Below the pieces are notes generated by a model. The model was given only the letters and a program-made list of their open reading frames with translations. It did no database searches and was not told where the DNA came from. This document shows positions 1-48,464 of a stretch of 64,000 nucleotides of DNA, one piece after another. The DNA lies in the NCBI GenBank assembly GCA_937951485.1, contig CALEDJ010000058.1:1-64000 (forward strand), read 5' to 3'. Source of the stretch: an uncultured bacterium (lineage in GTDB: Bacteria > Hydrogenedentota > Hydrogenedentia > Hydrogenedentales > CAILVY01). The position numbers were made by a program, and so were the translations under genes. How positions within the stretch are numbered: position 1 is the first letter of the stretch; each line of letters begins with the position of its first letter.

Positions 1-216
1 ATAACAGCATACCTCAGGTTTCGCGGCAAACGCCTGCTCCCGCTGGGAGGGGGAATAACAGCATACCTCAGGTTTCGCGGCAAACGCCCTCTCCCTCTGG
101 GAGAGGGAATAACAGCATACCTCAGGTTTCGCGGCAAACGCCTGCTCCCGCTGGGAGGGGGAATAACAGCATACCTCAGGTTTCGCGGTAAACGCCCTCT
201 CCCTCTGGGAGAGGGG
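1..216. repeat. Tandem array, 4 copies of a 54-bp unit in alternating A-B-A-B variants; array may extend left of the window
   Basis: 'ataacagcatacctcaggtttcgcgg' recurs at 1, 55, 109 and 163; units 1 and 3 end in 'cctgctcccgctgggaggggga', units 2 and 4 in 'ccctctccctctgggagaggg'. Confidence 0.97.
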
Positions 217-397
217 TGGGGTGAGGGGGAACAAAACAGGACACCTTGGCACACGTGTCAATGATGCCTCAAGAATGCCATAGAGAGGTTTTCGTATGGA
301 ATAAGCCCGCCACATCATCTTGATTATTCAACAGGATTTTCCAAGGGTTTCGGGCATGGTCTTTCATCTTCTCAATAATCTGTTTTGGACAACACTG
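1..397 (-). mobile_element. MITE-like element family A, copy 1 (truncated by window start); contains the 54-bp array
   Basis: Right end 'aatctgttttggacaacactg' is the exact reverse complement of the left TIR of the copy at 48030-48353; interior of ~180 bp is recognisably homologous in inverted orientation. Confidence 0.8.
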
Positions 398-48011: not shown

Positions 48012-48029
48012 CCTGCCGCATCTGACGAT

Positions 48030-48353
48030 CAGTGTTGTCCAAAACAGATTGTCAAGGGAATGAAGGGCTATGCCCGGAACCCTTGAGAATCCTGTGGAAT
48101 CAGGATGATGTGGCGGGCTTATCCTATGCGTAAACCGCTCGGTGGGTATTCCTGAGATATCATTGACCCCGTTACCAAGGTGTCCCGTGTTATCTCCCCT
48201 CACCCCACCCCTCTCCCCGTGGGAGAGGGGGTATATGGCGAAACCTGCGGCATGTTTGTGCTCCCTCTCCCTCCGGGAGAGGGGTGGGGTGAGGGGAAAG
48301 GTTACCATAATAGAAGGCTTTTCCCGGCAATCAGAATATTTTGGACAGCACTG
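48030..48353 (-). mobile_element. MITE-like element family A, copy 2 (complete, 324 bp)
   Basis: TIRs cagtgttgtccaaaaca (48030-48046) / tattttggacagcactg (48337-48353); 9-bp direct flanks tctgacgat at 48021-48029 and 48354-48362. Confidence 0.9.
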
Positions 48354-48464
48354 TCTGACGATGTTTCCTGCCGGGTTCAGAGTCGGCAACACGATGACAG
48401 GGGGACAAATCCCGGTCAAAGGGCATGACCGGCAATGGTTGCGGTGATTGTCGGAGACGCCGCG

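What the first reader, a model, noticed from the sequence alone, without database searches (positions are those of the whole stretch)
48021..48362. Complete MITE-like element with 9-bp target duplication (family A)
The 324-bp segment 48030-48353 starts CAGTGTTGTCCAAAACA and ends with the inverse of CAGTGCTGTCCAAAATA (15/17 match; after a 4-nt gap both ends continue with GATTG...GGGAA). It is flanked on both sides by the identical 9-mer TCTGACGAT (48021-48029, 48354-48362). No ORF of transposase size lies inside. Inside is a long perfect hairpin CCCCTCACCCCACCCCTCTCCC / GGGAGAGGGGTGGGGTGAGGGG. It inserted just after the stop of the beta-helix gene (48011). The structure fits a non-autonomous DDE-transposon derivative mobilised in trans.
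Basis: seen in the sequence. Interest (0 to 1): 0.75.

Follow-up and report, generated by a model that had tools for sequence, protein, structure and literature searches.

The report
IS4-type MITE carrying triplex repeats
A short non-coding transposon, present in roughly 60-80 copies in one uncultured bacterium and built from the ends of an IS4-type insertion sequence, carries inside it an expandable, flippable array of the widespread "BoxC" triplex-forming DNA repeat, which gives that repeat a clear vehicle for spreading in this genome.

Summary
It is not chance: 82 arm clusters of the family occur in the genome, 41 with both arms. Over 34 complete copies the 9-bp flanks match 6.5/9 on average, against 2.7/9 with shuffled partners. 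The family is a MITE of an IS4-family (DUF4372, IS4Sa-like) insertion sequence. ISs of that group in other genomes have CA(n)6TGTCC-type ends and exact 9-bp duplications, and one decayed IS shares the first 20 nt of the window element. No such transposase is intact in this assembly, so the family is orphaned or its partner was not binned. The unexpected part is the inside. The hairpin arms are the BoxC/"TM" intrastrand-triplex motif, until now not linked to mobile elements; in this genome 98 of 100 listed TM sites lie in the MITE. Between constant arms (about 168 and 58 nt) the core holds 1-9 palindromes and has flipped repeatedly (8 changes on a tree of 29 copies). Same-TIR MITEs with 9-bp duplications occur in other phyla. 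A new variant of a known kind, moderately interesting.

The parts
48021..48029 (.). left copy of the 9-bp target-site duplication TCTGACGAT
   Evidence: 9-bp statistics over 34 copies
48030..48046 (+). left terminal inverted repeat CAGTGTTGTCCAAAACA; corresponds to the transposase-5' end of the related ISs
   Evidence: first 20 nt identical to the left end of a decayed IS4-type IS in Gallionellaceae
48030..48195 (+). left arm, about 166 nt, near-constant length (162-171 nt) in copies without nested inserts; no coding capacity
48196..48230 (-). left BoxC/TM triplex motif (CCCCTCTCCC-ACG-GGGAGAGGGGTGGGGTGAGGGG on the minus strand)
   Evidence: motif definition from PMC4666352
48231..48262 (+). 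spacer between the two motifs; the unit that is inverted in copies L002/L003 and multiplied in others
48263..48296 (+). right BoxC/TM triplex motif (CCCTCTCCC-TCC-GGGAGAGGGGTGGGGTGAGGGG)
   Evidence: PMC4666352 Table 1
48297..48353 (+). right arm, about 57-58 nt, near-constant length in copies
48337..48353 (-). right terminal inverted repeat CAGTGCTGTCCAAAATA (read on the minus strand)
   Evidence: the same 17-mer lies next to an IS4-type transposase C-terminus in L253
48354..48362 (.). right copy of the 9-bp target-site duplication TCTGACGAT

Best explanation
The element is a MITE: a non-autonomous derivative of an IS4-family (DUF4372 + DDE_Tnp_1, IS4Sa-like) insertion sequence. Its TIRs were recognised in trans by such a transposase, which inserted it with a 9-bp staggered cut. 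An ancestral MITE acquired an inverted pair of BoxC/TM triplex motifs as its core and then amplified, which spread the motif through the genome. Later, within inserted copies, the repeated inverted motifs drove local rearrangement: unit duplication, spacer change and inversion of the whole core between constant arms. Shown here: TIRs, duplications, copy number, constant arms, variable and inverted core, and IS relatives with matching ends. Inferred: the trans-mobilisation itself, capture before amplification, and recombination or replication slippage on the palindromes as the cause of rearrangement.
For: The duplication is 9 bp and only 9 bp over 34 copies, six exact. 82 arm clusters, 41 with both arms. 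IS4-family ISs in the same phylum have TGTCC-type CA ends and exact 9-bp duplications (L122, L123, L124); L321 and L325 from other phyla likewise, and L321 combines the end CACTACTGTCCAAAATA, a 389-codon transposase frame and an exact 9-bp duplication. A decayed IS in Gallionellaceae has a left TIR identical to the window element over 20 nt and right TIR CGCTGCTGTCCAAAATA. Transposases score 243-280 bits against NF033592 IS4 (cut-off 115) and match DUF4372 and DDE_Tnp_1. Published IS4Sa features (CA-n6-T ends, 8-10 bp repeats, 1150-1750 bp, YREK) fit these ISs (alignment A1). Core: 1-9 palindromes between constant arms; 8 changes of core direction on the tree of 29 copies, at least 4 forced by starred branches.
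Against: No intact IS4-type transposase and no DDE_Tnp_1 domain was found in this assembly (two short remnants only), so the mobilising enzyme is not shown in the same genome. The IS copies with the nearest ends are decayed or show no duplication (L133, L259, L317). No empty site in a sister strain was available.
Confidence: 0.9

Rival explanations
1. REP/BIME-type element: the palindromes themselves are the mobile unit, moved by a RAYT/Y1 (TnpA-REP) enzyme, and the apparent TIRs are just flanking repeat.
For: The core is a palindromic GC-rich repeat in inverted pairs, and BoxC/TM motifs occur free of any such TIR in other genomes (G012, G057 loci).
Against: In this genome 98 of 100 listed motif sites lie beside the MITE arms, the arm/core junctions are constant, and insertions carry 9-bp duplications, which Y1 enzymes do not make (established knowledge).
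Confidence: 0.05
2. The motif core invaded many pre-existing empty MITE copies independently instead of being captured once before amplification.
For: The motif exists independently in related genomes, and an element with the same kind of ends but another interior exists in this phylum (L120).
Against: Arm lengths are constant (162-171 and 57-59 nt) in nearly all complete copies and none of the typed copies is empty.
Confidence: 0.07
3. Passive spread by homologous recombination or segmental duplication, with 9-mers matching by chance.
For: Copies diverge by 10-25% and many flanking 9-mers no longer match.
Against: The 9-bp match is far outside 2000 shuffles of partners and is absent at other lengths and offsets.
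Confidence: 0.01

Closest known systems
IS4 family, IS4Sa subgroup (De Palmenaer et al. 2008, PMC2266710)
   Same: Ends CA-n6-T, 9-bp duplication within the subgroup's 8-10 bp; TTGTCC on the left and CTGTCC on the right as in the nearest ISs
   Different: No transposase gene; 216-985 bp; interior replaced by a triplex-motif array
Bacterial MITEs
   Same: Short, non-coding, TIR- and TSD-bounded, many copies, mostly intergenic by a crude gene model (27 of 31)
   Different: The core is a variable-number, invertible array, so length varies from 216 to 985 bp; most bacterial MITE families are of nearly fixed length (general knowledge)
BoxC / PIT / TM (TMECO) intrastrand triplex motif (Holder et al. 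2015, PMC4666352)
   Same: Py-loop-Pu-loop-Pu motif CCCTCTCCC..GGGAGAGGG..GGGGTGAGGG; 11-nt stem by the same test in the window element and in E. coli; occurs as inverted pairs
   Different: There it is free and intergenic, and the authors found no link to transposons; here it is the core of a TIR/TSD-bounded MITE
REP/BIME with RAYT
   Same: Intergenic palindromes in pairs and clusters
   Different: TIRs and 9-bp duplications present; the motif is not free-standing in this genome

Membership tests
MITE (miniature inverted-repeat transposable element) | terminal inverted repeats | tested here: met
   15/17 match in the window copy; 128 TIR hits against 19 control
MITE (miniature inverted-repeat transposable element) | target-site duplication of fixed length | tested here: met
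   9 bp, 34 copies, shuffle test
MITE (miniature inverted-repeat transposable element) | multiple copies, no transposase gene | tested here: met
   82 arm clusters; no internal ORF of transposase size
MITE (miniature inverted-repeat transposable element) | ends shared with an autonomous element | tested here: met
   IS4-type ISs with the same or near-same ends in other genomes; none in the same assembly
MITE (miniature inverted-repeat transposable element) | mobilisation in trans by a related transposase | not testable with these tools
   needs an experiment
IS4 family, IS4Sa subgroup (the presumed autonomous partner) | ends CA-n6-T and 8-10 bp direct repeats | tested here: met
   CAGTGTTGT, CACTACTGT etc., 9 bp in L122, L123, L124, L321, L325 against Table 1 of PMC2266710
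IS4 family, IS4Sa subgroup (the presumed autonomous partner) | IS4-type DDE transposase with YREK motif | tested here: met
   NF033592 equivalog above cut-off; Y-x2-R-x3-E-x6-K conserved in alignment A1
IS4 family, IS4Sa subgroup (the presumed autonomous partner) | transposase clusters with IS4Sa and not with the IS4, ISH8 or IS231 subgroups in a tree of typed members | not tested
   no set of typed ISfinder transposases on hand
BoxC/TM intrastrand triplex motif | three consecutive blocks Py-loop-Pu-loop-Pu with the published G/C-rich sequence | tested here: met
   11-nt stem, 0 of 60 dinucleotide shuffles; sequence match to Table 1 of PMC4666352
BoxC/TM intrastrand triplex motif | forms a triplex in DNA | not testable with these tools
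   shown in vitro for the E. coli motif in PMC4666352, not for this one

The most novel reading that the evidence does not exclude
IS4Sa-type MITEs with TGTCCAAAA ends are a recurrent, cross-phylum vehicle for triplex- or hairpin-forming repeats, so that BoxC/TM motifs, whose way of spreading has been unknown, were seeded in many bacterial genomes by such MITEs and left behind after the ends decayed. Support so far: same-TIR elements with exact 9-bp duplications in Caldithrix, Ignavibacteria and Chitinivibrionales MAGs, one with a single mismatch in a Nitrospirae MAG, and triplex motifs in two further same-TIR elements (L196, L214) for which no duplication was found.
Probability: 0.2. Interest if true: 0.75.

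Novelty: new variant of a known kind. Interest (0 to 1): 0.5.

Why it matters
BoxC/TM triplex repeats occur in hundreds of bacterial genomes and are tied to genome instability, but no vehicle for their spread was known. In this genome the vehicle is plain: they ride in an IS4-type MITE. Because dozens of copies start from one architecture with constant arms, the family is a ready-made record of what triplex/palindrome arrays do over time (expansion, inversion, spacer change), which can be read from sequence and tested in a laboratory strain.

Tried and rejected
Transposase inside larger TIR pairs in the genome: the only pair near 1 kb (C23, 985 bp) is a MITE with nested MITEs, no gene. DDE_Tnp_1 in the own genome: none. 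Transposase remnants C58:75291 and C18:52649: the C58 one sits beside a different end (GTGCTGTCCCACAG); the C18 one was fetched but not examined further. A 24-mer of the MITE body in other GTDB genomes: no hit; relatives show only hairpin-level or short left-end matches. Rfam: only sub-threshold microRNA precursor models, i.e. long-hairpin artefacts. E. coli BoxC locus at 164.5 kb: no TGTCCAAAA end nearby. G012/G057 TM motifs: no such TIR. Insertion preference near gene ends: 8 convergent against 2 divergent sites, too few and the gene model too crude to claim a terminator role. Literature on MITE plus intrastrand triplex or BoxC: only PMC4666352.

Full report
What was checked. The 324-bp segment 48030-48353 is as described, with TIRs matching 15/17, an exact flanking 9-mer TCTGACGAT, and a 35-nt internal hairpin at 94% complementarity. 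It sits between two convergent genes, and the duplication starts 9 nt after the stop of a beta-helix gene. The strand folds far better than shuffles (z -9.85 as RNA, -9.56 as DNA).

Copy number. The window is contig C58 (positions 1-64000) of a 4.55-Mb, 77-contig draft genome. A BLAST search gave about 40 distinct full or partial copies. Profile searches with the two arms over fetched loci gave 82 clusters, 41 with both arms. Most single-arm clusters end at contig ends, and two of them may be halves of one copy, so the true number is roughly 60 to 82: the element breaks the assembly.

Target duplication. For 34 complete copies the last 9 nt of the left flank were compared with the first 9 of the right flank: mean 6.53 of 9; with partners shuffled 2.70, highest of 2000 shuffles 3.56; offset registers give about 2.4-2.5; other lengths from 6 to 13 give 24-31% identity against 72.5% at 9. 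Six copies have exact duplications. This is the signature of a transposase with a 9-bp stagger.

Which transposase. The TIR matches IS4-family ISs. A search for DDE_Tnp_1 in the phylum found none in the window genome but many in relatives. Among these, L122, L123 and L124 are ISs of 1323-1328 bp with ends CACTACTGTCCCAACGTT, CACTGCTGTCCCAACGTT and CAGTGCTGTCCGGTTAA and exact 9-bp duplications. Their proteins carry DUF4372 and DDE_Tnp_1 and score as NF033592 IS4 family. Nearer ends were found too: L133, from the same GTDB family as the window genome, CACTCTTGTCCAAGACAG/CAGTGCTGGCCAAGACAGG; a decayed IS in Gallionellaceae, CAGTGTTGTCCAAAACAGAT/CGCTGCTGTCCAAAATA, whose left end equals the first 20 nt of the window element; L317 in Caldithrix, CACTATTGTCCAAAAA/CACTACTGTCCAAAATA; L321 in Ignavibacteria, CACTACTGTCCAAAATA with exact duplication GGTTTAATT. 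Ends, duplication length, size and the YREK signature fit the IS4Sa subgroup in the published table (alignment A1). The window genome itself shows no DDE_Tnp_1 domain and only two short transposase remnants. Either the partner was lost, or its repeated copies were not binned.

The core. Nearly all typed copies have a left arm of about 168 nt and a right arm of about 58 nt around a core of 22 to 528 nt with 1 to 9 palindromes CCCTCTCCC-nnn-GGGAGAGGG separated by spacers mostly of 25-45 nt. Exceptions are copies with nested elements in the left arm (L024, L031, L032), one copy with two right arms (L037), and truncated ones (L040, L070). The usual spacer reads TATATGGCGAAACCTGAGGCATGC; it lies in one direction in most copies and inverted in others, and typed spacers are never mixed in direction within one copy. 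On a tree of 29 copies built from the arms only, the inverted state needs 8 changes for 8 rows (bootstrap 7-8), at least 4 forced by well-supported branches. The window copy and its near-twins L002 and L003 differ in this state. So the core flips repeatedly relative to the arms. Repeated units look more alike within a copy than between copies, which fits local expansion; this was read from the sequences and not measured.

What the core is. The right-hand motif CCCTCTCCC-TCC-GGGAGAGGGGTGGGGTGAGGGG, and its inverse on the left, match the BoxC/PIT/TM motif studied by Holder et al. 2015 (PMC4666352; for example CCCTCTCCCTGTGGGAGAGGGCCGGGGTGAGGGC in E. coli). A simple triplex test gives an 11-nt stem in the window element, none as long in 60 dinucleotide shuffles, and the same length in an E. 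coli BoxC locus. Those authors report many copies in over 260 genomes, higher local instability, and no association with mobile elements. In the window genome 156 places match the 22-mer within 2 mismatches, against 5 for the reversed control. Of the 100 places listed, 98 lie within 700 bp of a MITE arm, and the other two are one locus with a TIR-like end. The remaining 56 were not listed by the tool; of 141 motif sites in the loci held, 139 are beside an arm, but those loci were mostly fetched for the MITE. In relatives such as G012 the motif stands free, with no such ends nearby.

Beyond this genome. Of eight elements from other phyla that were folded, four have very strong internal hairpins (z -6.2 to -12.3). 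Two, without a demonstrated duplication, carry a triplex motif not reached in 60 shuffles (L214, L196). This is suggestive, not proof, of a general link between these MITEs and structure-forming repeats. The elements were picked by their ends, so the choice does not favour hairpins, but the sample is small.

Mechanism, with steps marked. Shown: insertion-type ends and duplications; constant arms; variable and invertible core; ISs with matching ends elsewhere. Inferred: mobilisation in trans by an IS4Sa-like transposase; capture of a BoxC/TM pair once, before amplification; rearrangement of the core by recombination or polymerase slippage at the palindromes, in line with the instability reported for this motif. 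Not shown: an empty site, activity, triplex formation in this sequence.

Verdict. The new part is what it carries, and that a widely scattered repeat with no known vehicle is almost wholly vehicle-borne in one genome.

Noticed in passing
window 145-397 (minus strand; contig C58 start): A second, truncated copy of the same MITE runs towards the contig start at the left edge of the window.
   Followed up: partly
L024 1241-1795, L031 722-1706, L032 682-1311: A second MITE-like element with ends GTTACATTTTAGCGGA is nested at nearly the same point of the left arm, with an 8-bp direct repeat (AGAAAATG, AGAAGATG). L032 has an exact outer 9-bp duplication, so the composite seems to have moved as a unit.
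   Followed up: no
L120 1501-2042 (relative G051) and L117 1501 on (own genome): TIR-like ends bordering interiors with other REP-type palindromes (GGCCTGAAAGGCC, CCCTGAAAGGGC), a different cargo; no duplication found for L120.
   Followed up: partly
L037 545-760: A 216-bp copy with two right arms in inverted order around the core, probably a product of recombination or template switching at the palindromes.
   Followed up: partly
L060 2044-2076: A 33-bp inverted pair of TIR ends with almost nothing between (CAGTGTTGTCCAAAATGGATTTGTACAACACCG on the minus strand), no duplication.
   Followed up: no
L287 (C58:73791-77015), remnant of a transposase at C58:75291-75515: Remnant of another IS4-type IS with a different end (GTGCTGTCCCACAG), beyond the window on the same contig.
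   Followed up: partly
L226 1135-1428 (Chitinivibrionales): Same-TIR MITE whose interior is a long inverted repeat of GGAACACGGATGCCACGGATGCGACGG, a different palindromic cargo.
   Followed up: partly
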